Source: Marchantia polymorpha subsp. ruderalis
Taxonomy: Eukaryota; Streptophyta; Marchantiopsida; Marchantiales; Marchantiaceae
Length of the DNA stretch: 64,000 nt
Direction: 5' to 3'
Assembly (NCBI GenBank): GCA_037833965.1
Contig: AP031353.1
Span: 17,672,501-17,736,500 of the forward strand
Shown: positions 21,093 to 54,419 of the stretch, in pieces
How positions within the stretch are numbered: position 1 is the first letter of the stretch
Layout: the number at the start of each line of letters is the position of its first letter
Notes under the pieces: model-generated
The model's database searches: none
What the model saw: the letters and a program-made list of their open reading frames with translations, nothing else
Told to the model about the DNA's origin: nothing
Position numbers and translations under genes: made by a program

Positions 21093-24000
21093 CGCTGTCT
21101 AAGAGTTGACAACCGACTTGCTTCGAGTTAACTCAAAGCAACCCGTTTGGGGCTCATGAAGACCTGTACGCTGCTAAATTCTCGCACGACAAGCGGACAA
21201 CGAGGGGATATTCCTTCTGGATGTATGCTGGAGTCAGGTATGATACTCGTGACTCCCTCAGGTGCTCGTGCATGAATGTCGTAAGCCGCTTCACGAGTTT
21301 TCGACACTCTCAATGTCACAATTTTACTGCGCTGCTGCCTTGCTGCAGTCGCTTACTTGCCTGTAGTGATCATGGACGAATGAAACATAAAATACAGCAC
21401 CGTACAAAAGAGATCAAATCACTTGCAAGGGCTCAAACGAGCAACACTGCACGTGTATTGAATCAAAGGTCTCAAGTAGAGTAAGTTCCAAATCTGTGTG
21501 TCGAGAACAACCATCGAATGAATAATGAATGTTTTAAATAATACCTGGGACTGGCCTCCTGGGAACATAATGTGGGCCACAGTCAGGATAACGCGAGGAG
21601 GTCCAGCACGGACTATGCACGGACTATGCACGGACGATGTGATGCAGATCTGAAGATGCGGGGCCCTATATGTCGAGACATGTGAATGGTATTAGTTTCT
21701 GCTACCTGTTTTGAGTCTTTCTCTGAAATAAAAATTGTTTGTTTTCAGCTTTTACACATCCACCACTAGATGAAGGAAGACTCTTGGAGTGCAAATTGTA
21801 GAAAGGTGAGTCAGAAACAGAATTGGTTTTGGTTGGACCAGATATATGCTCCTCTACATGCGGACTGAAGTTGGACGAGTGTTAAGAAGAAGACGTCAGT
21901 TGGTAAGAATCATCGTTATCATCATACATTCAAGATGGGTGGCTAAGATGAACAAGTCTGTCACTACTTTATGTGTAGCCTGTTACATAAGATATAGAGC
22001 CCAAATTGTCCTTATTGCAGGTTGCACCCGAGCTACATTTGAGGCTGGTTGCTTGTACTAGAGCATTTAGCAAGTATCTTTCAAAACTGAAGAGAGGAAA
22101 TTAAGGCTATAACTATATCACCTTGCGGACTAAATTTCACTCTTTCGAAAGAAAATGGACTGTTTTTATCATGAAATAGATGTTGTGATATGGTGACAAG
22201 AGAAGTGTCTTCGTGTTTGTTTTGAAAGTAAAAAGATATTATTTCATATTTCCTGAATTTGAATCTTTACAAGCAAAAGTCAGTTCTTGTAGTGTTGAGC
22301 CTGTTTGTATAAATATTACTGAATTTTTCTTTGATTCAGATGAAAGTCAGGGTGTAGATTGCTCAAAGGGCGAGACATTTAGAATTCCATCAGAATTTTG
22401 AACTCATTAAAAAAAATTTCTTTTGATGAGATAACTAGAACATGCAATGTTTTATTTTTCTAAAATTTCGCATTTCAACCAGAACTTGCGAGTACAGGAA
22501 TTTACCCGATAGGACCCTTCCGACGGCAATTCAGTCCACCGTCACCGATGTTCTACTGCGAGTTCTTGTAATTCCTTTCAATCCGGGTTAGGAAAAGCAC
22601 TGAGGCTCTTTGTTGAAAAGTGAAATGCACTTCACGGACCAAATAAGCAACTTACATGATTTCGACCAAGAGTTTTAGGAAAAAAAAAGTAAGGAGTGAG
22701 TAGATTATGCCTATATATATAACTATAAAATCATTATGGGACGTGAGAAATTGGACTCTTCCACTATGAAGATTGGGAGCCATGGAAAATCTGATAACTT
22801 AAATTCGGGAAAAAATTATTTTATTTCATTGAAGTGGAAACAAATCAGTTACAAGAACATAATTGACGGTGACCCGTCGGAGGGGTCCCATAGGGTAAAA
22901 TGGAACTTATTGGGTCCCATCAAGTAGTCAGGGTTATGATGGGGTCCCATGAAGCAAATTTCTCGCGTTTCCTGGCCTTGGCTTTTTCCTCCTTTCGCCA
23001 TACTATGCCATGCCATACCATTTGTCAGCTTCATCATCCATGTGTTTTGAAGGCCGTTGTCATGTGTATTGACGTTGGTGTCAATTTGAGTTCAGACAGG
23101 TTAGATTTGAGTTTGAGTCGGAGACACGTTGGGCCGCGGCAGACTATCCAGGAGCGTTGGATTGGGTTGGCGTTTCGCGTAGCATATATTCGAGGCGAAC
23201 TCAAAAACTGTCAGTTCTTCGAGTTGAGCCTTACACGCAGGAGTACTCTTATTCTTCCTCAGGGTAGTGAGTTTAGCTCGACTCTCTGTGTATTTGCGTT
23301 TTGACATTTTTACTCGAAGAACTGCGTATCTCACGTATTCGTGTTTAGAGAGTTTTCGTGACAGTGTTTGGAGTTTTTGCTGGAGAGCATAGCATTTTAG
23401 AATTTTCCGAATTTTCTGCTCAGCATTTGGACAGACCCGAGGTTCGGAATGGCGTGACGGAGCTGACAAGATGAGGGGGAGTTCGACAAGCATGGGGAGG
23501 GGACGAGATGAGAAAGTGGCGACATCACTAACAGAGCCTGCAATTTAATGTTGGGGTTCGCCTTCAAAAAAGGAGGATCTTGAGCACGCGGAGGATTTTG
23601 TCTTGTTTTGCTCTGACAACGCAGCAGCAGAAGGAGCACCCACATCGTTGTCTTCAAAGGTGACAGACTCTGCACAGCGAAGAGATTCTTGGCACTCATC
23701 TTGTTCTCCTCTCCATCGCCTTCGACGTCATGGTGTCCAGAAACGCATCATATCAATGGCGGTGTAGCACAGTCCATTCTGAGAACCCATCCTGCTATTT
23801 GCAAGTCCTCTTGACAGTCTAGACACTAGGTGTTCTTGCATTACCGCTGAGCGTGGAAGACAGTGAATAGCAAGCAGGAAAAGCTTGCGAAGGATGTTGC
23901 CACATTCGCAGGTTCGGTTGAACCGTGTATCGATCAGTCAAACCCGAAGGTGTGAATGAGCTGAGGAAGGAGTGAATATCCCGCAAAGTGAAGTTAATAA

Positions 24001-25930
24001 ATGGTGGTGAAGATCGTATCTTGCTGGTAGATTTACTGTTGATGATCGACCTCAGTCTTTAAGGTGCGGGTGCGAACCACGAGCACCAACTCTACTTGCC
24101 CAAGGTGCCCCGGTGTGCCTTCATTCGATGCCTGGGATCATAGACTAAGCTGGTCCAATGCTTGTTTGATCCGCCGACGAGATATATACGAAAGCAAAGG
24201 TTTATACAGTGACAAAGTTCACCACCAATCAGAAGCTGAAATTTCTGCAGCTCAAACATGGAGGCTGAGATTTTCAAATATTATCTATAGCTGAGCCTGA
24301 ACTCTTCCGAGTTGGAGGCCACCATCTTCACCAAAAGTAATGCTTTTCAGTGTTAGTGACACAAGTCATGTTTAGCCCTTGGCTTCCTGGGATTGGTGTA
24401 GCAAGGAGTTACTTTTACACCGGAATATCAACTCTCAAATATTCAGAAATCTGTTTTAGTAGCAGTCATCTGATCTCCTCGAGTTTTCAGGGTGTACTTT
24501 ACTCAACACGTATCATCTTCTAGATGAGACCTTGTTTTGTTGTGGAACAATGCAGCATCAATGCTTGAGCCTAAGCTGGGTCGTAGGCATGAAGTGAAGA
24601 TGGTTTTGCATGGTTTTGACAGCCGACAGCGGATTTCACAGTTATGATTTGAGAGGTATATTCTCGTGATTTGAAGAAGCAGCTTCACATGCCTATGTAT
24701 ACCCAAGATACCCGCTGATTGGAAATACAAGTGGCCTTTGTTTGACCATGGCTTCGTGCTGCATGCCCGCACCGTCAACTGAGGAAGATCAGGGAAGAGC
24801 CAATGAACTTTTGAGTCTAGTTATGAAGACAAGGAAATATTAGGATTGTAAGGAAACGCACGCTGACAAGGCACTTCATTGTCCATTTGAAATTTATCGC
24901 ACAGCGAACTAAAAGGTGGTGGGAGCGAAGCGAAGTTGTTTCTGTACTCTCGCAGAAAAAAAAAAAACATGAGTGTACTGCAACACTAATATTTGAGACG
25001 GAAGAGGTTGCCGTGGAAAAACCGTGGTTTGTTCTTGAGCAAGAATAAAACAGGTTTGGAGTCCAGATAGGAACTTGAGAAGTGAGGTCAACCGTTGTGC
25101 ACAGTTTTTGGGACAGCGTATAATGTAGGCTTTCTTGTATAAGAATTATTCTCATTCTTATCTTAAAAAAAAAACATTAATGATATATATATATATATAT
25201 AAAAGAAGAGAGAAGAGTAGTATTCTGAAGAGACTGAGAATTTGCACTCGTCTCACTTACTATGGTTTTTTGATTGCGAAAACATTGTACTCCTATATAT
25301 ATGACGTGATCAACATTATATTAGAGTTTTTAGTGATTAGTGTATGTGTTGGTTGAAGTGGTGGAAGCACATACTTTATCCCTATCTCTTTTCTTATGGG
25401 AACGATTAGAGTAGATGAACGCTTGTTACATTCCTTGCCTCTATTTATAGTAAAAAGTGGAGATATGAGGCGAAGTACGGATCAGCTCGACGTGGATTCC
25501 CTTTTTGCAACGGGATGAACGAGATGGCGTTGCAGGTGCTGGAGGCGGAGGATGATAGGAGGCGATGGAATTCAACTCGGGGTCGCGATGCGAGGCAATG
25601 TCCCGTGTGTTGTGTTGTTATGTGATGTGTTTCATTTCGGCTAGAGAGTCGTTGCTAGTTGTTTGCTTGTGTTTGGATCCTCTCCAGTCTGGCTTCTTGA
25701 TGTGTGCCCATGTCTGGGTTAACGCTGATTTCCGGAGTAGTTTTACTCCAGTGTGCTGTCGATAGTGCGGATGGATTTGATCACCGGCGCCTATCTTTGT
25801 TTCTCTTATGGTGAGACTGGAGTGATGACCAGTGGACCATGAGAGTCTTCTTGCGGTGATGACATGTTAGGTTGCTCATACCCATAGTCAGTAGGGCTAG
25901 AGCAGGTTAGTGCACGGACGAGGTAGGTGG
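21093..25930. other. Long intergenic region, no gene supported
   Basis: Frames here (for example 23101-23493 and 24503-24778, minus) lack recognisable domains or convincing exon structure. Seen in passing: a GGGGTCCCAT phrase repeated three times at 22879-22950, a (TA)n run at about 25182-25200 and an A-run at 24957-24967. The part nearest 25930 should be the leader of the gypsy element. I could not find there a match to the presumed 3' LTR. Confidence 0.5.
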
Positions 25931-25934
25931 AGTT

Positions 25935-27526
25935 GTGGCATTGGTGCCGGTTGGTGAGTTAGTCATCACGGAGGATTTTGGTGGTTCCGTTGAGGACCGT
26001 GGAGTATTTACGCGGAGTGGGTTGAGGTATCGGCTACCTCATCCTAGCGCAGCAGTGGTTGCAGAGTCACGGGGTATGGCAGATAGCGGATCTTTGGTGG
26101 TGATATCATCTAAGGTCTCACACTCGTGGACTGGGGACCGGGATGTACGGGGCCATGAAGGGCCCGCGGCGGTACTCTGGTGCAGTGGGCACCATTGAGT
26201 TGGATGATTTCATCCAGGAGTTTGACACGTGATGTGATATGCAGTTCTTGCGTAACCTCACGTTGCTTACACCCTTCTTTGCATGGAAGGGGTTGTTTCA
26301 GCATCTAGAGGGGCCTTCCATGGATGACTACCATGACTTTGGAAGAGAGTATGCTGTGGAGATTGACGCATGAAGACGTCATTGGTCTTCAAACTATCTG
26401 TCGATCATCCAGGGTGATGTTGGTACCAGTGGAGATGCAAGTGGTAGCATCACCGATGGTGCTAGTGGAGTAGGTACCAGTAGCGGTGCTGTTAGCGTTG
26501 CCAGTAGCAGCACGAGTGGATAGGCTACTGGCGTACCTTCGTTCAGCCCCATTCCTGAGTTCTTCAAGAGGTTGAGGAAGAACTATCAGGGGGTGAGGAC
26601 GGAGAAGTTGAGGAGTCTCCAGGAGTTTGAGCGGAAGACTGGTGAGAGTCTTCGGGAGGCATACACTCGTATGCGGCGGTTGATCTCAGTTACTCACGGT
26701 GTAACTGAGGCGCAGGCGGTCCAGTATTGATACAAGATACTAGACAGAGAGCTACGGCGGAGGGTTCGGAATGCTACCCTCTTGAGCAATGCGTCACCGA
26801 CATTGAGCTATGTGTTTGCTCTTTCTGAGAAGATTGAGCTTAACATAGTGGAGGAGAGAGTGATGACTTCTTCATTCGCTAGAGACGCAGCCACTACTTC
26901 TCGTGTTCCGTAGAGCATGGCATTGTTTAGACCCTTTGGTGGTGGGAGTCGCGGAGCGAAGACACGACACCAGACGGCCGTTAGAGATACAGGAGCACGT
27001 GCACCAGTGCCGTCGTTTGCTGGCCAGCAGCAAGGACCAGCATGTTGGACATGTGGAGGGGATCATCTGCGGAGAGATTGTGCCCAAGAGGCCGGAGGTC
27101 GGAGTTCGCAGGCCAGACCCCAATCAGCAGGTGGTGTATGACCACTGTGGTCGAGCAGGTCATACTCGAGATATGTGTTTTGACCTTCATCCAGAGTTGA
27201 CATCTGGTGGTAGAAAACGTGGTGGTGATGCTTCCCGAGGCCGACGTGGCTGTGCTGGTAGAGGTGGTCGAGGTGCCGGTGTAGTTGGATGCCCTGTAGC
27301 GAGTGCTACTTCGGCCACAGAGAGCGCGATGGCTGCCTGGATTGAGCAGTTGGAGCAGAGGCTCGATGCTATGGCGAGTTCTGGGGCGAGCACTTCCACC
27401 TCTTACGAGGAAGAGAATTTCTCTTATTTAGCAAATGCAGCACAGGTGGATGCATCAGTTGCAGTGAGTAGAGGTGCAGCTCGAGCTCCAGAGCCACGCG
27501 AGGCAACAGGGAAGTTGGACCCTTAG
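25935..27526 (+). pseudogene. Gypsy gag with two zinc knuckles
   Basis: Gag-like blocks include FAWKGLFQHLEGPSMDDYHD (about 26276), PIPEFFKRLRKNYQGVR, LQEFERKTGESLREAYTRMR and NIVEERVMTSSFARDA. Knuckle 1, CWTCGGDHLRRDC (about 27043-27081), is complete. Knuckle 2, YDHCGRAGHTRDMC (about 27137-27180), has Tyr at the first Cys position and lies in another frame. An Arg/Gly-rich linker (RGGRGAGVVG) and a predicted helix (WIEQLEQRLDAM) follow. In-frame stops include TAG at 26521, 26911 and 27524. Gag would package element RNA; here it is broken. Confidence 0.8.
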
Positions 27527-27568
27527 AGGGGTGAGGGTGGCCGTCAGGCCATACTTCCCCAGTCGTTT

Positions 27569-28510
27569 TTGTTGTCAGAGGTGGGCAGGACTTCATCCAT
27601 GAAACTTGTACCACCTAGTGACTTTAGTGGGAGGACTATGACATCTACGTCACGTGTTGTGGACACGGACACACCATCTAGTGCAGTGACGCGGATGGCT
27701 AGCTCAATGATGAGATCTCCACTATTTTCAGCTACGGAGCTGATAGACTCTGGGATTGACTTGGCTCGGATGTTTTGTTTGGCAGCCACGTTGTGTGAAC
27801 GTGGGAATGTCACTATCACGAGTGCCGAGATAGGCGAGGCTATTTTTGAGGAGCTATCCTCTACGATTACATTGAGCGATGAGTCGACATGGCAGGCGGC
27901 AGCGGCGCGGATGGAGTTCTTACCAGCCCGACCAGCCATTGATCGTGAGAGGGTTGTCCCTGGTGTGTGTATGGTGGACACCGGAGTGGTGTATTTCGCT
28001 TGGTGAGTGCTACAGGGCAGGTGTATGTCCCAGCCATAGTGTTGCTCAATTTTGGTGCACAGCCCTTGATGTTGGGCAAGACAACCTGCATTAGTTTGGG
28101 AGTTTGGAGGTTCTAGTTGTAGCCTTGTCCGTTCCAGATTCAGACATCACTCGGTGGCACTAGCGATAAGTCTTACATGATGACCAGAGAGCGCATATCA
28201 GTGGAGTTGAGGCATGATCATGCTCAGGATAGCTCGCAGTTTGGAGTTCGTGCAATGATTACATCACTAGAGTCATACGATGTGCTTGTTGGTGGAGCCG
28301 TGTTATATCCGATGGGTTTTCGGATGGACTACTGGACGAAGACCGCTGCCTATCGTCCTGGTTGGCAGTCCGGTGATGAACGTATGAGCGAGCTGCCTGT
28401 GAGATTTATTTAAGGAGCTCAACCTCTTGGATCCTCTTCCGCGATTCTGGCATCCGTTGAGGGTTTTAGCGGAGTGCTGACATGGCCCGATGACCAGTTG
28501 GAGGGGAACA
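27569..28510 (+). pseudogene. Gypsy protease region
   Basis: A frame continuous with gag passes through ARMFCLAATLCERGNVTITS, then across a frame change reads VPAIVLLNFGAQPLMLGK (about 28027-28083). This looks like a retropepsin active site in which DSG has become NFG. It continues with SLGGTSDKSYMMTRERIS, ESYDVLVGGAVLYPMGFRMD and AAYRPGWQSGD, a conserved C-terminal block in this element type. The changed active-site residues mean no activity. Confidence 0.7.
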
Positions 28511-28776
28511 AGTCATCCGACGACAGCTAAGTGTATGAGGATGTGGAGTAGGTGGTGAGTTTTGCAGCGGCAGTGTCTTCATCTTTGGATGTGCCACTTT
28601 GGAGTTCTTGCCATGCATTACAGCTGGAGGCTGATAGGTTGGTGAAGAAGGCTTGGAGTGAGGCCTCTTTACCAGCAGAGGCAGAGCGAGTATCAGGTGG
28701 TCGGCTAGTATGTGGTCCTAGCACGCTATCACCATTAGTTAGTACACCTATCATATAAGAGTATTACCCCGAGGGT

Positions 28777-29628
28777 GTTTGTTTGCTGGATCTTTTTGGG
28801 GGGATCAGCACGGGTTTGGCTGCAATATTTCAGTCAGGTATTCTTGTACGTAGATACTTGTACGTGGAGAGGGACGAGACTGCACGTCGAGTTTCTTCAC
28901 GATATGTTACACAGTTGATGCAGCGTTTTCCTTTGTTGTTGTTGCGATCAGCTGTTCGAGGATACCAGAAGGCGTTGCCTTCAGACATTTCATTGTTGGG
29001 GGCGCCAGACCTTGATCAAGTTGGACATATCGATTTGATGATTGCGGGATGGCCATGTCAGGGGCACACATGCGCTGGGCATGGAGCAGGGTTGCATGAC
29101 CCCAGATCTCGGATGTTTTGGAAAATGTTACGATTGTTACGTCATCTTTAGGAGCAGCAGACACGTTCTCCAGCATACATTCTAGAGAACGTACCATTGT
29201 TGGGTGACACTCGAGTTCAGTTGATGGTGAGTGTCCATGAGGTCAAGGCATGGATTGGATCGGTAGTGTTGTTGGATGTTGCGAGGGTTGGTTCACGTGC
29301 TCATCGTGCACGTTTATGGTGGACCAACCTTGTGCCACGAGAAATATTGCGTCATGCGTATGATTCTGTGCATCGCGATCCTACACTCACCGTTGACATG
29401 ATCTTGGATGTCTCTCGATACTCTCAGGTGGTGAGAGTTGCTGACATACCACCTATGGCGTTGGTGAACCGCGTAGGTCAGCCTCGGATGGCTTTACCTA
29501 CGTTAGTCAGTTATCCGGCATCACATGCATATCGTGATGGGGGACCTTGACTACTGTGGGACAGTACCCTACATCAGTTGGTGGAGCCCAACGCCGATGT
29601 GAGAGAGTGTGCGATGGGATTTATAACT
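28777..29628 (+). pseudogene. Retrotransposon-encoded cytosine-5 DNA methyltransferase, main part
   Basis: One frame carries the ordered C5-methyltransferase motifs. Motif I is LLDLFGGISTGLAAIF (SAM binding, about 28783-28830), followed by YLYVERDETA. Motif IV is IAGWPCQGHTCAGHG with the catalytic Cys codon at 29056-29058. Motif VI is YILENVPLLGD with Glu at 29185-29187. Motif VIII is GSRAHRARLWWTNLVP. A C-terminal VNRVGQPRMALPTLVSYPAS and a motif-IX-like VRECAMGF follow. SRAHRARLWWTNL and the single-domain layout recall the DNMT3/DRM side of the family more than DNMT1. Two in-frame stops (TAG 29149, TGA 29548) inactivate it. The first half is otherwise complete and catalytic residues are kept. 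The motif X part lies beyond the insertion at 30799-30905. Confidence 0.88.
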
Positions 29629-30793
29629 TGTGTAAGCTTTAAACTTCCCACCCCTTTTCGTCTGAGTCCGTATGGGGGTTCTGAGCGAACAAGGATAAAA
29701 CACTAACACTCATGAAACTGCACTTAGACAAAAGCTACTTGAGTTACCTCTACTATTGCCAATAAACCCTAGCTATCATATCCTAACTCTTCTCTCTCCT
29801 CCCCCACAAGAGGAAACAACACACAAAAAAAGAAAACTGCCCCCGCACACCAGTGACGCACTCCACTAAAACCCACGAGCACCCGCAGCCACAAGCCTCC
29901 GCAGCCACCAGCCTGCCGAGCCAGCCCTAACCTTAATTCAAAACTTAATCCTAAATCTGAGTCTAACCCTAAATCCTCTCCACTGAGCCGTCAGCCGCCA
30001 CACTTGTACATTCCACATTCATGACCACACCGACTTCCGCCGTCGGAAATCTTTTCCCGCGCACCGCCGAAGGCATCCTACCGCCGAAGGCCCTCGCGCT
30101 GAAGGCAACTTACCGCCGAAGACACTCTTCCGCACCTTTGACCATCTATAACAATCACTTCCGACACTCATAACTCAGCGATACCTTATCCGTTTCAAGA
30201 GTTCTTGGGCTCGTTAGAACGAGCCCAAGTTGAGTTCTTTCCAACAAAACCCTCACTAAGTCAAGACATTACGAATTGAAAAAGTTATGACGGTTTTACA
30301 CTTCCGCCGAAGGCCTTGCCCCGAAGGCCCCTTTCGCCGAAGTCCCTTCCGTCGAAGGCCTACTATCGCCAAAGGCCTTGCCCCGAAGGCCATTCGCCGA
30401 AGTCCTTTCACCTAACCATATCAGCCTCTTTAGACACTCATAACTCAGTGATACCTTATCCGTTTTAAGAGTTCTTGGGCTCGTAAGAAAGAGCGTGTCA
30501 AGTTCTTTTCAACAAGACCCTAACGAAGTCAAGACATTACGAATTGAAAAATTTATGACGGTTTTACTATTCCGCCAAAGGCTCTTCCGCCAAAAACCTG
30601 CTACCACCGACGGCATGCTACCGCCGAAGGCCTTGCCCCGAAGACCATTAAGTAGCCGTCTTAACGTATAAAGTAACTAACATCTGACTAACACTATCTA
30701 ATTATTTTTTATTTTTTTCTCTTTGATTGTTCTAAGATCTTCTACTTTTCTATTCTAGTTCAAAGTCAAAAGGTGAGCACATCATTGAGCTCA
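29629..30793. mobile_element. Nested insertion, probable solo LTR
   Basis: The sequence splits the methyltransferase frame: ATGGGATTTATAACT on the left resumes as GGTATGACCGCGACT on the right. The insert begins TGTGTAAGC and ends GAGCTCA(CA), so it has TG...CA ends, and it is flanked by TAACT/CAACT, a near-perfect 5-bp duplication. It has no coding similarity and is a plausible single LTR left by recombination. It contains many (C/T)CGCCGAAGGC(C) phrases, a ~270-bp imperfect tandem repeat (from 30163 and 30433) and, near its end, a good splice acceptor (TTTTCTATTCTAG, about 30745-30757). Confidence 0.65.
30163..30600. repeat. Imperfect ~270-bp tandem repeat within the nested insertion
   Basis: GACACTCATAACTCAG(C/T)GATA starts at 30163 and again at 30433, and similarity continues through AAGTCAAGACATTACGAATT and GACGGTTTTAC. 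The CGCCGAAGGC phrases lie between the copies. Confidence 0.8.
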
Positions 30794-30798
30794 CAACT

Positions 30799-30905
30799 GG
30801 TATGACCGCGACTTCTTCAGTTTCAGAGGCGTCGCGTCGTCAAGCTTTGGGTCAGGGCTATGGACCTGAACTGCTTGACATGGATTGTGAGCTTGGGCTT
30901 GGCCG
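30799..30905 (+). pseudogene. Methyltransferase C-terminal (motif X) part after the insertion
   Basis: After the insertion the frame GMTATSSVSEASRRQALGQ resumes and, with a one-base shift near 30850, gives AMDLNCLTWIVSLGLAEQ. RRQALGQAMD fits motif X of C5-methyltransferases, which returns to the SAM pocket. It shows that the methyltransferase was complete before the insertion. Confidence 0.6.
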
Positions 30906-31150
30906 AGCAACGCCGTTTGCGCGTTGATTTGGTGGTTGTTACATCACTTGTTAGCTCATTGCCTACCGGGACGGTAGTGGCAATGGCTGGGGGCGACATG
31001 CGAGATATTCGTCATCCTTGGAGTTCATGGGACGTGACGAGAGGACTTGCTAGAGTGGCCGCCAATGCAACTGGAGATGTTGATCAAGTGGAGGTTGCTA
31101 CGAAGTAGGGTACAGAGAGCCCTTCTGTGGAGGATGTGGCATAGCAACCA

Positions 31151-32080
31151 GTGACAGTTTCGTCTCCCTCTTGTGTGTCCATGGAGGAGAAGTGGGAGCC
31201 ATCGATTGGTTCTCAGATCACCGGAGGAGAGAGGGGACAGTTGACACAATTCCTACGTGACTATAGGAGTTGTTTTGCTTTCAGTATGAAGGAGCTGGGT
31301 ATTTTGATTGGAACTGGCATACGGATAGAGTTGGCTAGTGATACGCCAATCTTCCGTTGTCCCTATCGATATAGTGATATGGAAAGAGATTTGATTCGGA
31401 GTCGGACGTTGGAGTTATTGGAGGCTAGGTTAGTGGACTTGTCGCATGGTGAGTATGCTTCAGCCACTGTTATGCCGGCGAAGAAGAATGTACATGGCAA
31501 CTACACATATGCGCATGTGTGGAGACTACCGTCCCATCAATCGGTAGACGAAGGCCAATAAGTATGTCATGCCTACACCTAAGGAGATCTTCGATGTGGT
31601 GGGACATGCGAGGATTAGTACTTTGGATCTTCGGGGAAGATACCATCAGTTGCCGATTCGGGAGGAGGACAAGGCCAAGACAGCATTTTGGAATGTCAAC
31701 TCCCACGGCAAGGATTGTTTGTATTAGTGGCGATTCTTACCCTTTGGGTTGAAGAATGCACCTGGTGAGTTCCAGAGAGTGATGGACAGGATTCTAGCGG
31801 GGTTGGATTTTGTCACATGTTACATTGATGATATCTTGGTGTTTAGCGACACGGTGAAGCAACACCGGACACATTTGCAGATTGTGCTTGAGCGGTTGAG
31901 GGCTCATGGTTTGCGGTTACATCCTGGGAAGTGTAGGTTCTTCTATGAGAAGGTGGAGTACTTGGGTCATGTGATTTACCCAGGTGGTTTGGGAGTTCAG
32001 CAAGCAAAGGTGGATGCTATAGCGCGCATTCTTCGTCCAGCAGATGTGAGTAGAGTTCGTGCATTCATGGATTTGGCGAA
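31151..32080 (+). pseudogene. Gypsy reverse transcriptase
   Basis: Blocks in order: FAFSMKELGILIGTGI, CPYRYSDMERDLIRSRTLEL, GEYASATVMPAKK, then after a one-base shift near 31514 CGDYRPIN, STLDLRGRYHQLPIREEDK (first Asp), WRFLPFGLKNAPGEFQRVMD and YIDDILVFSD (catalytic Asp pair intact), then LHPGKCRFFYEKVEYLGH. The shift and a TAG at 31725 break an otherwise well-kept domain. Confidence 0.92.
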
Positions 32081-32628
32081 CTATTACTGGAGGTATATGA
32101 AGGAATTCAGTGCTATAGCGAAGCCTTTGAACCAGTTGCTGAAGTCGGATCAGGAATGGCAGTGGGAAGATGAGCAGGAGAGAGCTTTTGTTGAGCTCAC
32201 GGCCAGGTTGGTGGCCGCTCCCATCTTGAGGAGACCTATCAGAGGTCGTCCATACCAGTTGCACACTGATTGGAGTATGTTGGGACTTGGAGCGGTGTTG
32301 ACGCAGTGTGACGATGAGGGCAAGGAGTTTGTGGTTGCGTATGCTAGTCGTTCGAACAATGCAGCAGAGTCGCGGTATAGTTCGTACGACGGAAAGTGTT
32401 TGGCAGCGGTGTGGGATGTGGCACACTTTCGGTGTTACTTGTTTGGTACGCATTTCACCCTTGTTACTGATCATCAGCCTCTCAAGTGGTTGATGGAGTC
32501 CGACAAGCTCACAGGGAAGCTTGCATAGTGGGCTCCCATCTTACAGGAGTACGACTTTCAGGTGGTGCATAGGCCTGGAGTTGCAAACCTGGATGCCGAC
32601 GGTTTGAGTCGAAACCCATGCACAAGCT
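32081..32628 (+). pseudogene. Gypsy RNase H
   Basis: NYYWRYMKEFSAIAKPLNQL links to LHTDWSMLGLGAVLTQ (first Asp), a Tyr-Asp-Gly-Lys-Cys block where Glu is usual (SSYDGKCLAAVW), and TLVTDHQPLKWLM (later Asp). TAG at 32526 interrupts before the DADGLSR tail. Confidence 0.88.
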
Positions 32629-32999
32629 AGGAGGATGACATTGGAGCTAGATGGCATGGTGAGGTTGATGAGGAGATGGTGCCCGGTTGGCATGCATCTG
32701 CCTTCATGTGTTGGTTACATGGAGCCTCTAGCAGTGAGTACCACTTGACATTTTACTCTTGTCAGAGAGTAGATAGTTAGTATTCGGATCTTGAGGTTGA
32801 GGATGGTGATGTGAATCAGCGTGATGTTTACGATGATGCGTTGGTGTTGGAGTTCCTACGGACCTGTATGGTGCTAGGCACAAAGGGTGCCAAGGAGCGA
32901 GATCGTGTTCTCCAGCGGGCGAAGAGATACCGATTGGAGGGATCACATGTTCTCCGAGTGTGGGAAGACGGTAGGGTACGAATAGTACCCCATCCATCT

Positions 33000-33960
33000 T
33001 AGAAAGCACGCATTGTGAGGCATGCTCATGAAGAGTTGGGACATTTTGGAGTGAAGCGTACGTACAACTTACTCCTTGGTCAGTATTGGTGGACTGATAT
33101 GCATACGCAGGTACAGTAGTTGGTATCACGTTGCATGGTTTGTGATCGGGTGAGAGCATCGTTCAATACCCCGACACGAGAGTTACATCCCTTACCTATC
33201 ATGGGGTTGGGTTACCATTGGAGTTTAGATTTTGCTGGATCACTACTTTTGACTGCACGACATCATCAGAATGTGTTGGTGATGGTGGAGCATTTCTCCA
33301 AGTGGATTGAGTTGGTGGCATTACCTAACAAGGCGAGTGAGGGAGTAGCATATGCTTTTCTTGACAGGGTGCTTAGTCACTTTGGTGCACTAGCTTAGGT
33401 GTTGACCGATCAGGGGACAAAGTTTCAAGGTGAGTTTCAAGTCTTGTGTGACAAGAAGCTGATTGATCACCGGACTACTTCCCGAGATCATCCACAGGTG
33501 GATGGGTTGGCTGAGCGGATGGTACAGACGGTGAAGAGAGCGTTGCGCAAGTATGGCCTACAGAAGGGGCATCTTGGGGACAGGGATATTTAGTTACCAT
33601 GGCTGGCCATGGTATATCGATTCAGTCGTGAAGCATCCTTGGCTTCGTTTTCACCATATTTTCTATTGTACGGCCAAGATCTAGACTTGCCTACAGCAAT
33701 TCATCGTGAGTCTAGCGAGGTGGTGAACCTTGATGATCGAGATATGTGGGTGAGAGTGTGTTCTCAACGTGCAGTGCTCTTTCGGATAGTTATGACTGCA
33801 GCGTTTGAGAACCTTGCGATTGCTCAACATAGGGATACGTTGCGGTATGCAACAATCCGGGGAGGAGGTTATCGACCATCGATTCGTAGGTTCTGTGTGA
33901 GAGATTACGTCTATTTACAGCAGATTGCACCGACTACTTTGGATGTGACAACAGGTTTAC
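33000..33960 (+). pseudogene. Gypsy integrase
   Basis: The HHCC zinc site reads HAHEELGHFGVKRTYN ... CMVCDRV. The core has HWSLDFAGS, LTDQGTKFQGEF and HPQVDGLAERMVQTVKRAL, giving the D, D, E triad. The C-terminal part reads FSPYFLLYGQDLDLP and FCVRDYVYLQQ. Four TAG stops (33000, 33117, 33396, 33591) interrupt it. The triad itself is intact. Confidence 0.9.
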
Positions 33961-34096
33961 CTTCTGGAGTTCTCATGTTGGATTGTCGGGACGGTGTCGT
34001 TTGGAAGGCTCATGGCGCACAGTTGCGCCATGCCACCTCCCAAACGTGGATGGTACTATGGACCCAAGCTTGGCGATTGTACGTGCCGGCTTGAGG

Positions 34097-34249
34097 TGCA
34101 TGTTATGTGACTCAACTGATCAGACGACCCATATGTTGGTGTGTGATAGGTGTTCTAGAGTATGGCACATGTCGTGCTTGACTCCTCCTATCGATGTTGT
34201 TCCTATTGGACGATGGGTTTGTCCTCGATATACTTTAGAGTGTAGATGA
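34097..34249 (+). pseudogene. PHD finger at the end of the integrase polyprotein
   Basis: The last codons before a natural TAG at 34247 read CMLCDSTDQTTHMLVCDRCS, then VWHMSCLTPPIDVVPIGRWV and CPRYTLEC. This is a C4HC3 PHD finger (C-x2-C, C-x2-C, H-x2-C, then C-x2-C) in which the final Cys is Tyr. A TGT to TAT change would explain it. PHD fingers commonly read histone H3 tails. The finger is joined in frame to a linker (NVDGTMDPSLAIVRAGL), but a frameshift near 34000 separates it from the integrase in this copy. Confidence 0.82.
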
Positions 34250-34393
34250 TTTGATCTTCACATGTTACGAATTGCAGATAGGCGACATAGCACCCGGCCT
34301 ACTGGTTCGCGCACCTACGAAAGTGCATAGCATGTAGTTGTAGATAGGGCTACCTGGGAGTTAGAGAGACTTGACCGCCAGCTAGGGGGGCGA

Positions 34394-34740
34394 GTTGTGA
34401 TAACTTTGTATGTGGACACTCTCGTTCCTTGTGTATATGTGTGAATTGTGAATAGAGCATGTCAACGATGTATGATGTATGGGGATACCGAGTCGCACGA
34501 CCCCGTAGAAAATTGCAGTATAGATAACTAGTGATTGGGTCAATTTTTTTGACCCGGTCACATTACATGGACATGTTTGTTTGAAACGATGTGACATGAG
34601 TTACATAATCATATGTAGAAAATGATATATCTCTTGATGAAATGGTAATGCTCGCCCATAACAACGATAGGTGACTCGAAAAATGATTTGGACAGTGATA
34701 TAGAAATTAATTACATTTTTAATAAATTAGTTATGCTCGG
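34394..34740 (+). repeat. Presumed start of the gypsy 3' LTR; right limit unknown
   Basis: It begins TGTGATAACTTTGTATGTGG right after a polypurine run. It contains a foldback GGGTCAA/TTGACCC (34537-34555). No second copy occurs in the window, so the end cannot be fixed and the LTR call rests on position only. Confidence 0.4.
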
Positions 34741-36239: not shown

Positions 36240-39170
36240 GCGGATCTACAGGGAATTTCACCACAGTTGCAATGACCGCTCAGCTTACGGGTTTTCACTC
36301 CACTTCACCGAGCAGCAACAACATAGCATTATAGCAGTTGCGTGATAGTAAACGGACGAAACGGCCAATCACAAGCCTCGGCACTAAAAATGGAAACCAG
36401 TTCCATAGATGGACATAGAAATCACCACCAGACAAAGCAAATTCGATCAACAAAGTTTCCAGAATTTTCAAATTCCTTCTACATCAGTCACAGCACTTAC
36501 AAGAAACTTCATGACACACAGTCAGATTCAGCACCCTGGTTGTTTCCACCCAATCAGAATTGTTTCATTCGGCAAAAAGCCAATCAACTCCCTCTCGACG
36601 AAGGGGCACGAGGCACCAGCTTCGTGTCCCCTCGTCGAGGAGGAGTGATTGCTGAAATAACATATCTTGCAAATCCCTTATATACACCAAACTTGCATTG
36701 ACCGCTTAGCTTATGGGTTTTTTCTCCACTTCAACGAGCTGCAACGCCCAAGTCACTTTCCTGAACCAGCATTATAGCACTTGCATGACAGTTCATGGAC
36801 GAAACGACCAATCACGAGCCTCGGCACTAAAAATGAAAACCAGTTCCATAGATGCACATAGAAATCACCACAAGCCGAAGCAAATTAAATCAACAAAGTT
36901 TCCAGAATTTTCCAATTCCATCTACATCAGTCACAGCACTTGCAAGAAACTCCATGACACACAGTCAGATTCAGCACACTGCTTGTTTCCGCAGAATCAG
37001 AATTGTTTCATTCGGCAAAAAACAATCACACCATCAGTTACGGAGGGGCACGAAGCACCAGCTTCGTGTCCCCTCGTAACGGAGGGGGGATTCTTGAAAT
37101 AACATGTCTTGCAAATCCCTTATATACACCAAAGTTGCATTGACCGCTGAGCTTATGGATTTTCTCTCCACTTCAACCAGCAGCAACCACATAGTCACTT
37201 TCCTCAACCAACGATATAGCAGTTGCATGATAATTCATGGCCGAAACGACCAATCACAAGCCAACACATTAACAATGGAAACCAGTTCAAAAGATGTACA
37301 TAGAAATCAACACCAAGCAAATTATACAACAAAGTTGCCACATTTTTTCAAATCCTTCTACATCCATCACAGCACTTGCAAGAAACTTCATGACACACAG
37401 TAAGATTCAGCACCCTGCTTATTTCGGCCGAATCAGAATTGTTTCATTCGGCAAAAGCCAATCAACTCCCTATCGACGAAGGGGCACGAGGCACCAGCTT
37501 CATGTCCCCTCGTCGAGGAGGAGTAATTGCTGAAATAACATGTGTTGCAAATCCCTTATATACACCAAAGTTGCATTGACCGCTGAGCTTATGGGTTATC
37601 TCTCCACTTCAACGAGCAGCAACGACATAGTCACTTTCCTGAACCAACATTATAGGAGTTGCATGATAATTCATTGACGAAACGACCAATCAAAAGCCTC
37701 CACACTAACAATGGACCCCACTTCCATAGATGGACATAGAAATCACCACAAGCCAAAGCAAATTCAATCAACAAAGTTTCCAGAATTTTCCAATTCCTTT
37801 TACATCAGTCACAGCACTTGCAAGAACCTTCATGACACACAGTAAGATTCAGCACCCTGGTTGTTTCCGCCCAATCAAAATTCTTTCATTCGGCAAAAGC
37901 CAATCAACTCCCTCTCGACGAGGGGACACGAAGCTGGTGCTTCGTGCCCCCTCGTCGACGAGTGATTGCTGAAATAGCATGTCTTGCAAATCCCTTATAT
38001 ACACCAAAGTTGCATTGACCGCTGAGCTTATGGGTTTTCTCTCCACTTCAACGAGCAGCAACGACATGGTCACTTTCCTGAACCAACATTCTAGGAGTTG
38101 CATGATAATTCATTGACGAAACGACCAATCACAAGCCTTCACACTAACAATGGAAACCAGTTCCATAGATGGACATAGAAATCACCAGAAGCCAAAGCAA
38201 ATTAAATCAACAAAGTTTCCAAATTTTTCCATTCCTTCTACATCCGTCACAGCACTTGCAAGTAACTTCATGACACACAGTAAGATTCAGCACCCTGGTT
38301 GTTTCGCCCAATCAAAATTCTTTCATGCGGCATTTGCCAATCAACTCCCTCTCGACTCCCTCTCGAGGGAGGGGCACTTGCAAGTAACTTCATGACACAC
38401 AGTAAGATTCAGCACCCTGGTTGTTTCGCCCAATCAAAATTCTTTCATGCGGCATTTGCCAATCAACTCCCTCTCGACTCCCTCTCGAGGGAGGGGCACG
38501 AGGCACCAGCTTCGTGTCCCCTCGTCGAGGAGGAGTGATTGCTGAAATAACATGTCTTGCAAATCCCTTATATACACCAAAGTTGCATTGACCGCTGAGC
38601 TTATGGGTTTTCTCTCCACTTCAACCAGCATCAACGACATAGTAACTCTCCTGAACCAACATTATAGCAGTTGCATGATAATTCATTGACGAAACGACCA
38701 ATCACAAGCCTCCACACTAACAATGGAGACCAGTTCCATAGATGGACATAGAAACCACCACAAGCCAAAGCAAATTCAATCAACAAAGTTTCCAGAATTT
38801 TCCAATTCCTTCTACATCAATCACAGCACTTGCAAGAAACTTCATGACACACAGTAAGATTCAGCACCCTGCTTGTTTTCGCCGACTCAAAATTGTTTGA
38901 TTCGGTAAAAGGCAACCACCCCTCCTCTACAAACGCTGATGATAGCTTCTGCCTATAGCTGATGAAATACCTTTCGTTGCAAATCTTTTATACGCACCAA
39001 ACATGCATTGACTGCTAAACTTATGGGGTTCTTCTCCATTTGAATGTCCCAGTGCCGAAATAGTTCATTCAAAGCATGACGCGTATTTAAAATGACGTGA
39101 TTCACCTCAACTACTCCACTCCCCCGGCAAATTACCTTAGGCCAAAACCTAAAAATACAAACCATCTGGG
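36240..39170. repeat. Tandem array of ~0.43-kb units, most with a long hairpin
   Basis: At least seven units can be aligned by TTGACCGCT(G/T)AGCTTATGGG, found at about 36272, 36698, 37140, 37576, 38015, 38588 and 39008 (spacings 426, 442, 436, 439, 573, 420). Shared phrases include CATAGATGGACATAGAAATC, CAGCACTTGCAAGAAACTTC and CAAATCCCTTATATACACCA. The 573-bp spacing contains an extra internal duplication. Most units hold a hairpin of about 45 bases (36594-36639, 37037-37080, 37472-37516, 37914-37962, 38490-38540). The array lies between the bromodomain exon and the C-terminal exon of the BRD gene. Short minus-strand frames in some units are broken in others, so I do not regard them as coding. 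Confidence 0.93.
38370..38490. repeat. Local ~119-bp duplication inside one array unit
   Basis: GGCACTTGCAAGTAACTTCA through TCTCGAGGGAGG is repeated head to tail (about 38254-38372 and 38373-38491), which explains the longer 573-bp spacing. Confidence 0.8.
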
Positions 39171-40480
39171 TTCATATTGTGTTCTATTTGAAAGCGACAG
39201 CGACGAAAAAGTCCTGAGAATGCATGACCCATATTTCGCGATAAGGACGAAAACTAGTCAGTCTGACAGTCACTAGTGTCAGAACTGACGGTGGCAATCC
39301 GTTAGAGAGAAGACAACCCTCGGGGCGTCCTCTAAGTACCTTGGATGAAACCCTATTCATCAGAGAAAATCACTTTGACAAGTCTACAGTATGAAGCAAC
39401 GTCATAGAAGTTGCAATATAGTCGATAACCGAAAACGAAAACAACCCTCGGCGCTGACAGTGGCAATCAGTTCCACAGGAGACAGCCCCCAGGTGTCCTC
39501 TAGATAACTTGGAGGTAACACACTTGCTCAGATGAAGTGAATTGGACGACATTATGAACGGAAGTCATAGCTATTGCGAAGGTGGGGAAACTGATTGGCA
39601 AGACCACTTTCAGGCCTCCTCTACACAACTTGAAGGTAACACTCTTGCTCACATTTTCATGTGAGCAAGAGTTTTCACATTTTCACTTCAACAAGTCGTC
39701 ATTAGGAACCAAAATCATAGCGGTTGCAAGAAACTTTATGGTAAGATAACTGTTCTCTAAATCACTTGGAGTTAACACTCTTGCTCACATGAAATCAATT
39801 AAACAAGTCGGATAGGAACCAAAATCATAGCGGTTGCAAGATACTTCATGGTAAGATAGCTGTTCTCTAAATCACTTGGAGATAACACTCTTGCTCACAT
39901 GAAATCAATTAAACAAGTCGGATAGGAAACAAAATCCAAGCGGTTGCAAGACACTCGACGACACACGGTAAGACAACACTCTTGCTCACATGAAATCAAT
40001 TAAGCAAGTCGGATAGGAAACAAAATCAAAGCAGTTGCAAGACACTTTATGACACACGGTAAGACAACCACCTCTCCCTCAACGACTGCTTCGTGATCCG
40101 TCGTTGAAGGAAAGGATGGCTGATGAAATACCTTCTATTGCAAATCCCTTATATGCACCAAACATGCATTAACCGCTAAGCTTATAGGGTTTTTCTCCAT
40201 TTGAAAGAGACAGCAACAAAACAGTCACTTAATGAGCCAACAATATAGAAGATGCAAGACAATTGATGGACGAAACCGAACAATCACGAGTCTCGGCGCT
40301 GACAGCGTCAACCAGTTCGATACAAGAAAGCCCTCGAGGCTCGAGGCGTCCTCTAAATAACTTGGAAGTAAGCCACTTCCTCAGATGAAATCACTCGAAG
40401 AAGTCGATACTAGTTATGAGCAACCGACATCAACGTGTACATACTATATTCATCAAAATCAAGAGGCGCTTTATGAACCG
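39171..40480. repeat. Diverged edge of the array with shorter subrepeats
   Basis: A phrase AACACTCTTGCTCACAT recurs at about 39632, 39776, 39893 and 39969 together with ATCAATTAAACAAGTCGGAT and GCGGTTGCAAGA. A full-type segment with CAAATCCCTTATATGCACCA and a changed hairpin reappears at 40079-40250. No bromodomain exon is seen here. Confidence 0.8.
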
Positions 40481-52428: not shown

Positions 52429-54419
52429 ATGGGTAGAATTGAAAGAGGATGCGCAAAAAGTTCGAAACGTTACGTGATGGCATGCTGGTTCGTTCTTCAT
52501 GTGATCCTATCTTCAATCTCAATGGTGACAGCCGAGCACTCCGTATGCCTCGCACTGCAGCCTTCACCAGCATTGACACCATTCGTCGACAAACTGCCCA
52601 TCCCTCCTACCATAAATGTCTCCAACGGCACTCGGCTCGTACTGGGAGCTTACAAGATCACTCAGGTGCATATATGAACTGTATTCATCAAATTCAGCTA
52701 TTCATCATCAAGTGGGCGAATAACCAGCTTTCTGACCAAAATGGAAATCAGGCAATGATGACTTAATTTAACTTGCTATTCAGTCTTTTGTTGATCAGAA
52801 GCCCATCCATGCAAAATAGAAGACAGTTGTATTGCTCATGAATGTATTAACAAGCTGCAGAGGCTCACTGTTATATGGGTACATGCTCCATGGTGCAGAA
52901 ACTACATCGTGATCTTCCACCCACAACCCTTTACGCCTACGGAACGAGCCAAGCATCGGCGAGCTTTCCAGGACCGACTCTGATGGCCAAAAAATATATC
53001 ACCACTTCAGTGCGCTGGGAGAATCACATCATCGACACGGAGCATATGTTCACCGTGGACAGGAGTATCCATTGGGCGGATCCACCCAACGGAGGAGTGC
53101 CCATGGTGGTACACCTGCACGGATCCGAGACCCGCAGTGACAGCGACGGGCACCCGGACGCTTGGTTCACTGCGGCTGGAGACGTCGGGCCCACGTTCAC
53201 CTCGCAGAACTACGTGTACCCGAACGATCAAGAAGAAGCTCTTCTCTGGTACCATGACCACACCGTCGGAATGACTCGCTTGAACTCCGCCGCCGGAATG
53301 GTCGGACTCTATTTCATAAAATCTGTCGTGGAAGAGGCATTGCTTCTACCATCTGGACCTTTCGAGATTCCTCTCGTCATCCAGGACAGAAACTTCTGGG
53401 CCAATGGGTCCATCAACTTCCCGGACACCGGTATTTTCCCTGAACATCCGAACTGGTGCCCCGATTATTACGGCGATACGATTTTGGTGAATGGGAAAGT
53501 GTGGCCGTACCTCGAAGTGTACCGAACGAAGTACCGCTTCCGGATGCTGACTGCAGGAAATGCCCGCTTCTTCAACTTCAGTCTCAGCGAGCCAAGCCTC
53601 AGCTTCGTTCAGATCGGCACGGACGGCGGGTTCCTCAATAAACCACTGACCATGAAGACGTTGTTGATGGCTCCTGCGTACCGGACTGACATGATCATCG
53701 ACTTCTCCTCGCTCCCGGTGGGTACGAAAGTGTACATGAACAACTCTGCTCCCATTTTCTTCCCCGGAACACCGCCTCCCGGGACATCGATTGACAATTC
53801 TCCCGGCCAGAGGCAGGTCATGGAGTTCAGAGTCGTTGCACCTCCTCCTGGTTATAATATGCCGACAGTTTACGTCCCGAGCATTTTGGCCCCGACGCCC
53901 GACAAGAACTTGAACCCCTACACTGACGTGCAGCGGAATTTGACTCTGAATCTAAGTCCACCCGGGACCCCGTTCACCCTTCTCCTGAACAACCATCGAT
54001 TCATGGACCCGGCGACGGAATCGCCAAAGCTCTATACGACGGAGATCTGGTCTATCACCAATTTGATCGGAACGACGCACCCCATTCACATCCATCTGAT
54101 CAACTTCCTCATGCTGGACATGCAAACCTTCGACCAGGGGAGACTGAACGCGGGGAATTGCTCTCTTGCATTGCAGTTCCCCGACCCTCTGAGCTGCTTC
54201 ATTGAGCCGCCACAGCCGCCCATCGATGCCCAAGCTGGCTGGAAGGACACAATCATCGTGTTTGACCAGAAAGTCACCAGGCTGCTGCTCCGATGGAAGC
54301 CTCGATATGGTGTCTTCACGTTCGATCCCACAACGGAGCCCGGCTACGTGTGGCACTGCCACATGCTCGACCACGAGGACAATGATATGATGAGACCTCT
54401 CGTCATGAGATGGATTTAG
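52429..54419 (+). CDS. LPR: LPR1-type multicopper oxidase (probable ferroxidase)
   Basis: Two exons, 52429-52665 and 52899-54419, join in phase at GT/AG (ITQ|KLHRDLPP) to give 585 residues, close to Arabidopsis LPR1. Residues ~17-36 (MACWFVLHVILSSISMVTAE) are a signal peptide; NVS and NGT sites follow. The cupredoxin copper motifs are complete: HLHGS (His151, His153), WYHDHTVG (His198, His200), HPIHIH (His473, His476, His478) and HCHMLDHEDNDMM (His565, Cys566, His567, His571, Met576). Family: plant LPR proteins are bacterial-type (CotA/bilirubin-oxidase-like) ferroxidases that oxidise Fe2+ in the cell wall or secretory pathway and link iron to phosphate sensing. Substrate is inferred from family membership. 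AATAAA at 54640 may be a polyadenylation signal. Confidence 0.94.

What the first reader, a model, noticed from the sequence alone, without database searches (positions are those of the whole stretch)
28777..30905. Ty3/gypsy element carrying a complete-looking cytosine DNA methyltransferase between protease and RT
Seen: motifs I, IV (PCQ), VI (ENV), VIII and X in order, in line with gag-protease upstream and RT downstream. Known: retroelement-encoded C5-methyltransferases have been reported in charophyte algae and dinoflagellates. Inference: this land-plant copy belongs to the same or a sister lineage, and the enzyme methylates element cDNA or its insertion site. A transposon that carries its own silencing-mark enzyme is counter-intuitive and biologically interesting.
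Basis: partly seen in the sequence, partly recalled or inferred. Interest (0 to 1): 0.9.

Follow-up and report, generated by a model that had tools for sequence, protein, structure and literature searches.

The report
Liverwort retrotransposon carrying a DNA methyltransferase
This is one decayed copy of a large, recently active family of retrotransposons in a liverwort that carry their own DNA-methylating enzyme and a likely histone-reader domain, akin to elements reported from an alga, which lets one ask why a genomic parasite would carry the mark used to silence it.

Summary
Real, but this copy is broken. Window 23058-34502 is a Ty3-type retrotransposon with 4-bp target duplications. Its DNMT3-type C5-methyltransferase lies between protease and RT, interrupted by two stops, a frame change and a 1.16-kb insertion. 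It is no chance capture: the genome (Marchantia) has 123 methylase-profile matches, at least 3 of them host genes, 24 in frames of 1351-1365 aa. In 20 of 20 fetched copies Gag-PR-methylase ends at TAG CAA CYA, a plant-virus-type readthrough context (recalled), directly before RT-RH-INT-PHD. dN/dS is 0.125; the domain models as DNMT3. Split direct repeats (A...B-A-B) replace LTRs, as reported for KnitGypsy-Dnmt3 of Klebsormidium, here with a DDE integrase and duplications. Relatives occur in Calypogeia, Sphagnum, Klebsormidium and, with the methylase moved between RNase H and integrase, in a chlorophyte and many unnamed proteins. A PHD finger follows the integrase in 48 of 51 testable relatives. 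The enzyme probably methylates the element's cDNA or landing site; that is inferred. New variant of a known kind.

The parts
23054..23057 (.). 4-bp target-site duplication CCGT, left
   Evidence: CCGT precedes TGTCATG; the same 4 bases follow the B end; two full relatives have ATCT and CAAT
23058..23310 (+). A1, 5' terminal repeat unit (diverged)
   Evidence: 81% and 83% matches to A2 of L028 at 23115-23234 and 23245-23308; starts TGTCATG like A1 of L020 and L025
23311..26133 (+). leader between A1 and gag
   Evidence: position between A1 and gag; similarity to L027, L023 and L028 begins at 25203, 25261 and 25454
26140..27676 (+). gag with 6 in-frame stops and one frame change
   Evidence: tblastn with L028 ORF1, two pieces
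27979..28410 (+). aspartic protease region, 2 stops
   Evidence: tblastn; relatives P0141, P0154, P0157 hit Asp_protease_2
28774..29633 (+). C5-cytosine methyltransferase, motifs I to IX, 2 in-frame stops
   Evidence: Pfam PF00145 E 3.7e-7; tblastn 89.6% up to 29637; similarity to relatives breaks at 29633
29634..30795 (.). nested insertion inside the methylase, solo-LTR-like
   Evidence: breakpoints against L010, L018, L023, L028; 194 nt from its 5' part match 24 places in the genome, itself included
30796..30943 (+). methylase motif X part, in another frame
   Evidence: tblastn 30818-30943; similarity resumes at 30796
31142..31150 (+). TAG CAACCA, stop between Gag-PR-methylase and RT
   Evidence: same site TAG CAA C(C/T)A in 20 of 20 fetched copies; the bare 9-mer is not rare in the window (5 found, 3.8 expected)
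31238..32579 (+). reverse transcriptase and RNase H, 3 stops
   Evidence: PF00078, PF17919, PF17917; tblastn
32940..33956 (+). integrase (zinc-binding region and DDE core), 4 stops
   Evidence: PF00665 E 6.4e-5, below its cut-off; tblastn 88.8%
34067..34246 (+). integrase C-terminal PHD finger
   Evidence: PF00628 E 6.5e-11; tblastn 86.7%, no stop
34393..34502 (+). B, 3' terminal repeat unit (single; no A2-B2 seen here)
   Evidence: 91% to B of L028
34503..34506 (.). 4-bp target-site duplication CCGT, right

Best explanation
Shown: the window holds a decayed copy of a multi-copy Ty3-type retrotransposon family that encodes Gag-protease-DNMT3-type C5-methyltransferase in one frame, a UAG in a CARYYA context, then RT-RNase H-DDE integrase-PHD finger. 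Two fetched full copies have split direct repeats (A1...B1-A2-B2), and three copies have 4-bp target duplications. Inferred: ribosomes mostly stop at UAG, so the methylase is made at Gag level and is packaged with the particle; it then methylates the element's double-stranded cDNA, or DNA at the landing site, while the PHD finger (sequence-closest to readers of the unmodified H3 tail) steers integration to chromatin lacking H3K4 methylation. New copies would be born already marked, which hides them from host sensing of naked DNA and limits harm to the host, at the price of silencing.
For: 123 PF00145 matches in the genome, at least 3 of them host DNMT3 or DRM genes; 24 of 123 in frames of 1351-1365 aa. 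In 20 of 20 fetched copies the frame ends at TAG CAA C(C/T)A; 15 of 20 have an open 1042-1045 aa RT-to-PHD frame. dN/dS between the two subfamilies: methylase 0.125, gag 0.18, PR region 0.11, RT-RH 0.06, INT 0.07, PHD 0.13. Motifs I, IV, VI, VIII in 20 of 20, motif X string in 19 of 20. AlphaFold2 model pLDDT 92 and pTM 0.90; the 50 best PDB matches shown are all DNMT3. A1/A2 differ at 1 of 293 and 2 of 291 sites, so recent insertion. 43 of 46 full RT-to-PHD copies have the methylase upstream. 48 of 51 related methylase+integrase proteins that reach far enough carry the PHD. PHD nearest to CHD4, KMT2D, PHF12, DPF2/3, PHF21A, KDM5B, ATXR5 and UHRF1. C-to-T excess at CHG (10.7%) and CG (7.4%) over CHH (5.2%) in the window copy fits past methylation.
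Against: No activity, expression, packaging or histone-binding data. The KnitGypsy enzyme did not methylate yeast DNA, though human DNMT3B failed as well. Host enzymes methylate plant transposons anyway (established knowledge), so the C-to-T pattern does not show self-methylation. The stop context is shared by descent among copies. The H3K4me0 reading rests on sequence similarity and on what I recall of the PHD relatives. 3 of 46 full RT-to-PHD copies lack a methylase match nearby. A1 was absent from the 6 kb held left of ORF1 in L022.
Confidence: 0.55

Rival explanations
1. The methylase serves the element as a non-catalytic or RNA-directed part (cDNA or genomic RNA binding, or RNA methylation), and DNA methylation is not its job.
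For: It sits on the Gag side with the nucleic-acid-binding proteins. The KnitGypsy enzyme was inactive on yeast DNA, and the 2018 authors raise RNA as substrate for the LINE type.
Against: PCQ, ENV and RxR motifs are kept in 20 of 20 copies, and 12 columns including A-G-W-P-C-Q are invariant over 26 aligned relatives. Nearest solved folds and sequences are DNMT3, with DNMT2 far behind.
Confidence: 0.2
2. The enzyme acts in trans on host chromatin or on competitors (for example other elements or DNA viruses) rather than on its own DNA.
For: The 2018 authors discuss host-wide effects and a 2019 opinion paper proposes antiviral use. 24 long open frames exist.
Against: The enzyme is fused to Gag-PR, which argues for particle location; the 2018 paper found the K. 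[quoted passage not shown]
Confidence: 0.12
3. A chance capture in one liverwort copy without function.
For: The window copy itself is broken.
Against: 123 methylase-profile matches, at least 3 of them host genes; dN/dS 0.125; relatives in another liverwort, mosses and algae.
Confidence: 0.02
4. Two or more separate captures of DNMT3 by Ty3 elements: one giving type I (before RT), another type II (before integrase), so that the shared lineage is partly convergence.
For: The enzyme sits at two places in Pol. Only four non-element sequences root the tree, branches are long, the split has moderate support (93 and 81), and in the integrase tree type I is not one side of a branch, though starred branches do not rule that out.
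Against: 77 retroelement enzymes fall on one side from DNMT3 and DRM with support 100. L018 matches four enzymes of the type II half at 32-39% over 322-329 aa but the host DNMT3 at 30% over 117 aa. Both types carry the PHD.
Confidence: 0.3

Closest known systems
KnitGypsy-Dnmt3 of Klebsormidium nitens (de Mendoza et al. 2018, PMC5890265)
   Same: DNMT3-type enzyme between protease and RT in a Gypsy-type Pol, repeats said to be the same as in DIRS (A-coding-B-A-B), purifying selection.
   Different: Land-plant host; an in-frame UAG splits Gag-PR-methylase from RT-RH-INT-PHD, while the annotated, partial P0170 runs from methylase into RT. The PHD finger and the 4-bp duplications are shown here; 'PHD' does not occur in that main text. 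P0170 ends before the PHD position, so its presence there is open.
SymbioDIRS-Dnmt3 of dinoflagellates
   Same: Retrotransposon-borne DNMT3 with A-coding-B-A-B repeats; methylates CG in yeast.
   Different: Tyrosine recombinase of the DIRS class; here a DDE integrase and target duplications.
Chromoviruses (Ty3 with integrase chromodomain)
   Same: Ty3-type RT, RNase H and integrase with a chromatin-reader module at the integrase C-terminus.
   Different: PHD finger instead of chromodomain, plus a methylase; no ordinary LTRs seen.
Host DNMT3 and DRM of Marchantia
   Same: C5-methylase motifs; the element enzyme has the unrearranged DNMT3 order.
   Different: Host DNMT3 looks split by an intron (by eye) and is only 30% identical over 117 aa; host DRM is rearranged.

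Membership tests
DNMT3-type C5-cytosine methyltransferase | C5-methylase profile and motifs I, IV (PC), VI (ENV), VIII, X in canonical order | tested here: met
   PF00145; motifs I, IV, VI, VIII in 20 of 20 copies, X string in 19 of 20; order not rearranged as in DRM
DNMT3-type C5-cytosine methyltransferase | Closest to DNMT3 among solved methylases in sequence and fold | tested here: met
   P0123: DNMT3A E 8.4e-11, DRM 3.9e-7, HaeIII 4.4e-4; L018 model: 50 of 50 shown Foldseek matches are DNMT3
DNMT3-type C5-cytosine methyltransferase | De novo methylation of DNA | not testable with these tools
   Needs biochemistry; KnitGypsy enzyme inconclusive in yeast
Ty3/gypsy-type LTR retrotransposon | gag, PR, RT, RNase H and DDE integrase in Ty3 order | tested here: met
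Ty3/gypsy-type LTR retrotransposon | Identical long terminal repeats at both ends | tested here: not met
   None seen in 20 loci of 10 kb, 8 of them extended by 2 kb; split direct repeats A1 / B1-A2-B2 in 2 of 3 copies with long left flanks
Ty3/gypsy-type LTR retrotransposon | 4-6 bp target duplication made by a DDE integrase | tested here: met
   4 bp in 3 of 3 copies whose two ends were both seen: CCGT, ATCT, CAAT
KnitGypsy-Dnmt3 kind | DNMT3 domain inside a Gypsy polyprotein upstream of RT plus DIRS-like repeats | tested here: met
   definition
KnitGypsy-Dnmt3 kind | Common descent with the Klebsormidium element | tested here: inconclusive
   P0170 lies on the type I side in methylase and RT trees, but type I has support 93 in the methylase tree and branches are long
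DIRS | Tyrosine recombinase, no target duplication | tested here: not met
   Integrase core and 4-bp duplications
DIRS | Split direct repeats | tested here: met
Chromovirus | Chromodomain at integrase C-terminus | tested here: not met
   PHD finger there; no chromodomain listed in the Pfam scans

The most novel reading that the evidence does not exclude
One ancient retroelement lineage of green plants (chlorophytes to bryophytes) carries a portable reader-and-writer chromatin kit: an integrase PHD finger that picks H3K4-unmethylated chromatin and a DNMT3-type enzyme, delivered in liverworts at Gag level through UAG readthrough, that premethylates the cDNA or the landing site. The enzyme has moved once within Pol, from before RT to before integrase or the reverse, without being lost.
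Probability: 0.3. Interest if true: 0.88.

Novelty: new variant of a known kind. Interest (0 to 1): 0.68.

Why it matters
A transposon that keeps the enzyme for its own silencing mark under selection is a puzzle that the 2018 paper left open. Here it is found in many copies, with very recent insertions, in the genus of a tractable land-plant model where methylation, chromatin and new insertions can be measured. [quoted passage not shown] these bryophytes have them. The integrase PHD, the readthrough site and the two enzyme positions give concrete, testable parts. Split direct repeats together with a DDE integrase also pose an open replication question.

Tried and rejected
Ordinary LTRs were looked for around the element in the window and in 20 copies and not seen. 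I first took the variable 5' ends for truncation; longer left flanks of three copies showed A1 about 4 kb upstream of ORF1 in two, not in the third (L022). For the other 17 copies the left flank held (1.3-2.0 kb) is too short to tell truncation from a longer leader. An intron reading of the 1.16-kb insert (GT...AG) was rejected: intact relatives read straight through that place and the insert belongs to a dispersed repeat (24 matches). That search query began at the presumed left end, so it does not itself prove that end. No relatives in viral contigs. Regex domain ordering misplaced some domains and was replaced by profile searches. The integrase tree was poorly resolved and type I was not one side of a branch. 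Host places C3:19066767 and C2:342506 were first taken for DNMT3 and proved to be DRM.
Full report
Observation. Pfam finds a C5 DNA methylase in 28783-29151 (E 3.7e-7), RT and RNase H in 31749-32528, an integrase core below its cut-off in 33120-33398 and a PHD finger in 33983-34249. With proteins of an intact relative (L028), tblastn places gag at 26140-27676, protease at 27979-28410, methylase at 28774-29637 with its last motif at 30818-30943, RT-RNase H at 31238-32579, integrase at 32940-33956 and PHD at 34067-34246. The copy is broken: these pieces, the last methylase motif not counted, hold 13 TAG and 4 TGA in frame; there are frame changes and a 1.16-kb insertion in the methylase. Intact relatives lack that insertion. 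194 nt of it match 24 places in the genome, itself at 100% and the other 23 at 83-93%. It reads as a solo LTR (TGTAAGC...GCTCACA between imperfect 5-bp duplications), which is an inference.

Host. The nearest named relatives are from Marchantia polymorpha (P0017, 91% over 55% of the query). The window's assembly has 241 Mb in 9 contigs, and P0124 of M. polymorpha is 96.6% identical to ORF1 of L028 over 1281 aa. I conclude Marchantia, probably M. polymorpha or a close relative; the record itself is unnamed.

Copies. PF00145 finds 123 places, a lower bound by the tool's own note. At least three of them are host genes: one DNMT3 (C6:12459429) and two DRM (C2:342518, C3:19066770). 24 of the 123 lie in open frames of 1351-1365 aa. 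I fetched 20 of these 24; 15 of the 20 also have an open RT-to-PHD frame of 1042-1045 aa. This sample was chosen for intact ORF1, so it says nothing on the share of intact copies. Among the 150 best RT matches, 46 lie in frames of 1018-1045 aa without a stop inside the match; one more of 1117 aa was left out. 43 of the 46 have a methylase match within 2.2 kb upstream and 44 of the 46 a PHD match within 3.2 kb downstream (from; counted). All these lists are capped, so the misses are upper bounds.

Readthrough. ORF1 ends in all 20 at TAG followed by CAA CCA (19) or CAA CTA (1). In the 15 with an open ORF2, and in L009 and L022 for its first part, ORF2 continues in the same frame right after the stop. 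The window has TAG CAACCA at 31142. UAG-CARYYA is the tobamovirus-type readthrough context; that name is recalled, no call gave it. The 9-mer itself occurs 5 times in the window against 3.8 expected, so the evidence is its place and its conservation beside a fast-evolving tail (dN/dS 0.58), not its rarity. The copies share it by descent. If it works, Gag, protease and methylase are made in excess over RT and integrase.

Selection. Between the two subfamilies (51 pairs for ORF1, 14 for ORF2) dN/dS is 0.125 for the methylase, 0.179 gag, 0.114 protease region, 0.057 RT-RH, 0.071 integrase and 0.131 PHD (Nei-Gojobori counts by my own script, ratio of means, no test of significance). Motifs I, IV, VI and VIII are present in 20 of 20 and the motif X string in 19 of 20; L028 differs.

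Enzyme. P0123 of Calypogeia fissa matches human DNMT3A first in the PDB (E 8.4e-11), then DNMT3B, DRM and bacterial enzymes. The AlphaFold2 model of the L018 domain has mean pLDDT 92.3 and pTM 0.90, and the 50 best Foldseek matches shown are DNMT3 entries with query TM-scores 0.63-0.69 and 18-22% identity. The host has its own DNMT3 gene (L040) and two rearranged DRM genes (L041, L044). L018 is 30% identical to the host DNMT3 over 117 aa, but 43% over 252 aa to the Klebsormidium enzyme and 32-39% over 322-329 aa to four enzymes of the type II half (P0166, P0181, P0243, P0250).

Ends. No ordinary LTRs were seen. The 3' end is B1 (119 nt) - A2 (295 nt) - B2 and ends CACGACA. Of 20 copies, 15 show two or three long B matches within the DNA held, 4 show one and one none; B1 and B2 are identical in 14 of the 15 (L017 has a shortened second one). 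Longer left flanks of three copies showed A1 in two (L020, L025) at 4429 and 4172 nt before the ORF1 frame, differing from the same copy's A2 at 1 of 293 and 2 of 291 sites, while A units of the two copies differ by about 6%; the third (L022) showed none in the flank held. Target duplications are ATCT and CAAT there and CCGT in the window copy, which has A1 and a single B. So the repeats are split as in DIRS, yet the element has a DDE integrase and duplicates 4 bp. The 2018 paper's Fig. 4 legend says that KnitGypsy-Dnmt3 repeats are the same as those of DIRS, given in Fig. 1 as A-coding region-B-A-B. How such ends are replicated with an integrase is open.

Relatives. Named relatives are Marchantia polymorpha, M. 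paleacea, Calypogeia fissa, Sphagnum troendelagicum, S. tenellum, S. fallax and Klebsormidium nitens, and P0243 whose source label Chrzof1 I read as Chromochloris zofingiensis, a chlorophyte; most hits are unnamed. Own profiles show two architectures. Of 58 database proteins with both methylase and RT or RNase H, 16 have the methylase before RT (type I) and 42 have it after RNase H, before integrase where present (type II, for example P0181 and P0243; Pfam order). PHD follows integrase in 48 of 51 proteins that have methylase and integrase and reach at least 290 aa further; P0231, P0211 and P0228 lack it. It is also in the 15 intact Marchantia ORF2. In the methylase tree of 81 rows the 77 retroelement enzymes are one side of a branch with SH-aLRT 100 against DNMT3A, host DNMT3 and two host DRM; types I and II separate with 93 and 81, and no labelled row lies in the wrong half. 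In the RT tree (14 type I, 25 type II) they separate with 98. The integrase tree has only 5 type I rows and needs 2 changes, though its starred branches force only 1. These are quick trees with long branches and a poor outgroup. They favour one old capture followed by a move within Pol, against 'independent acquisition ... in the K. nitens lineage' as the 2018 paper put it, but do not settle it: SymbioDIRS enzymes, the 2025 'ChloroDNMT' group and methylase-less Ty3 elements are not in the trees.

PHD. The nearest solved PHD fingers are those of CHD4, KMT2D, PHF12, DPF2/3, PHF21A, KDM5B, ATXR5 and UHRF1. Several of these read the unmodified H3 tail (recalled). The ADD domain of DNMT3 reads H3K4me0 (start of the abstract of PMC11021467 in the listing). 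So the element would hold, in two proteins, a reader and a writer like those that DNMT3 of animals holds in one. This is an inference.

Past methylation. Against the state shared by L028 and L023, the window copy has C-to-T (both strands) at 7.4% of CG, 10.7% of CHG and 5.2% of CHH sites, other changes at 3.5, 4.6 and 2.3%. Other changes vary in the same order, so part of the contrast is not deamination. It fits CHG and CG methylation over time, by host or element. CpG observed/expected is 0.76 in the window element and 0.80 in the rest of the window, so no strong CpG loss.

Literature. PMC5890265: abstract, sections 9, 10 and 11 and passages. PMC12344493, PMC6338049 and PMC6453930: passages only. 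Others: listings only. PMC12344493 says that some DNMT3 are embedded in retrotransposons as reported in streptophytes and dinoflagellates. PMC6338049 lists green algae and charophytes among hosts of DAM- and DCM-encoding Ty3/Gypsy and DIRS elements and says that such transposons are not present in land plants such as tracheophytes. So an alga host is not new as such. In the listings of ten searches I saw no paper on such elements in bryophytes, on an integrase PHD in them, on the stop, or on the second architecture; the library lacks most subscription papers and bioRxiv preprints, and I opened four papers.

Verdict. Real, conserved and partly new: a land-plant, recently active branch of a known but little studied kind, with a likely readthrough site, a PHD finger, split repeats with target duplications and a second architecture that I did not find in the passages seen. 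The mechanism is plausible and untested.

Noticed in passing
L037 and L039 (leader of L020 and L025, about 3.1-3.7 kb before the ORF1 frame): The long leader holds antisense frames that look like host gene pieces. In a 188-aa frame of L020, residues 1-85 match five places in a host gene cluster at C8:6639238-6672649 (45-93%) and residues 81-188 match C1:4189320 (84%); the fused frame is in four places at 95-100%. It looks like a captured chimera of host exons.
   Followed up: partly
window 29634-30795: Solo-LTR-like insertion inside the methylase, with CGAAGGCC-rich repeats and a duplication at about 270 nt spacing; 24 places in the genome match part of it.
   Followed up: partly
L020 and L025, about 1.06 kb before the ORF1 frame: Small upstream frame of 116 aa (MPLGEKVGES...) in both copies; no function sought.
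   Followed up: no
P0208, P0210, P0243: A G-patch domain (PF01585) occurs in some type II elements, in P0243 between methylase and integrase.
   Followed up: no
L014, L018: L014 has three B units; L018 is followed at once by a second copy that starts at about -496 of the ORF1 frame.
   Followed up: no
window 36325-40330: Long tandem arrays with a 442-bp unit and 110/91-bp units just downstream of the element.
   Followed up: no
window 52875-54419: Intronless 514-aa frame that looks like a multicopper oxidase (by eye).
   Followed up: no
window 2456-4964: Frames that look like a Ty1/copia element (by eye).
   Followed up: no
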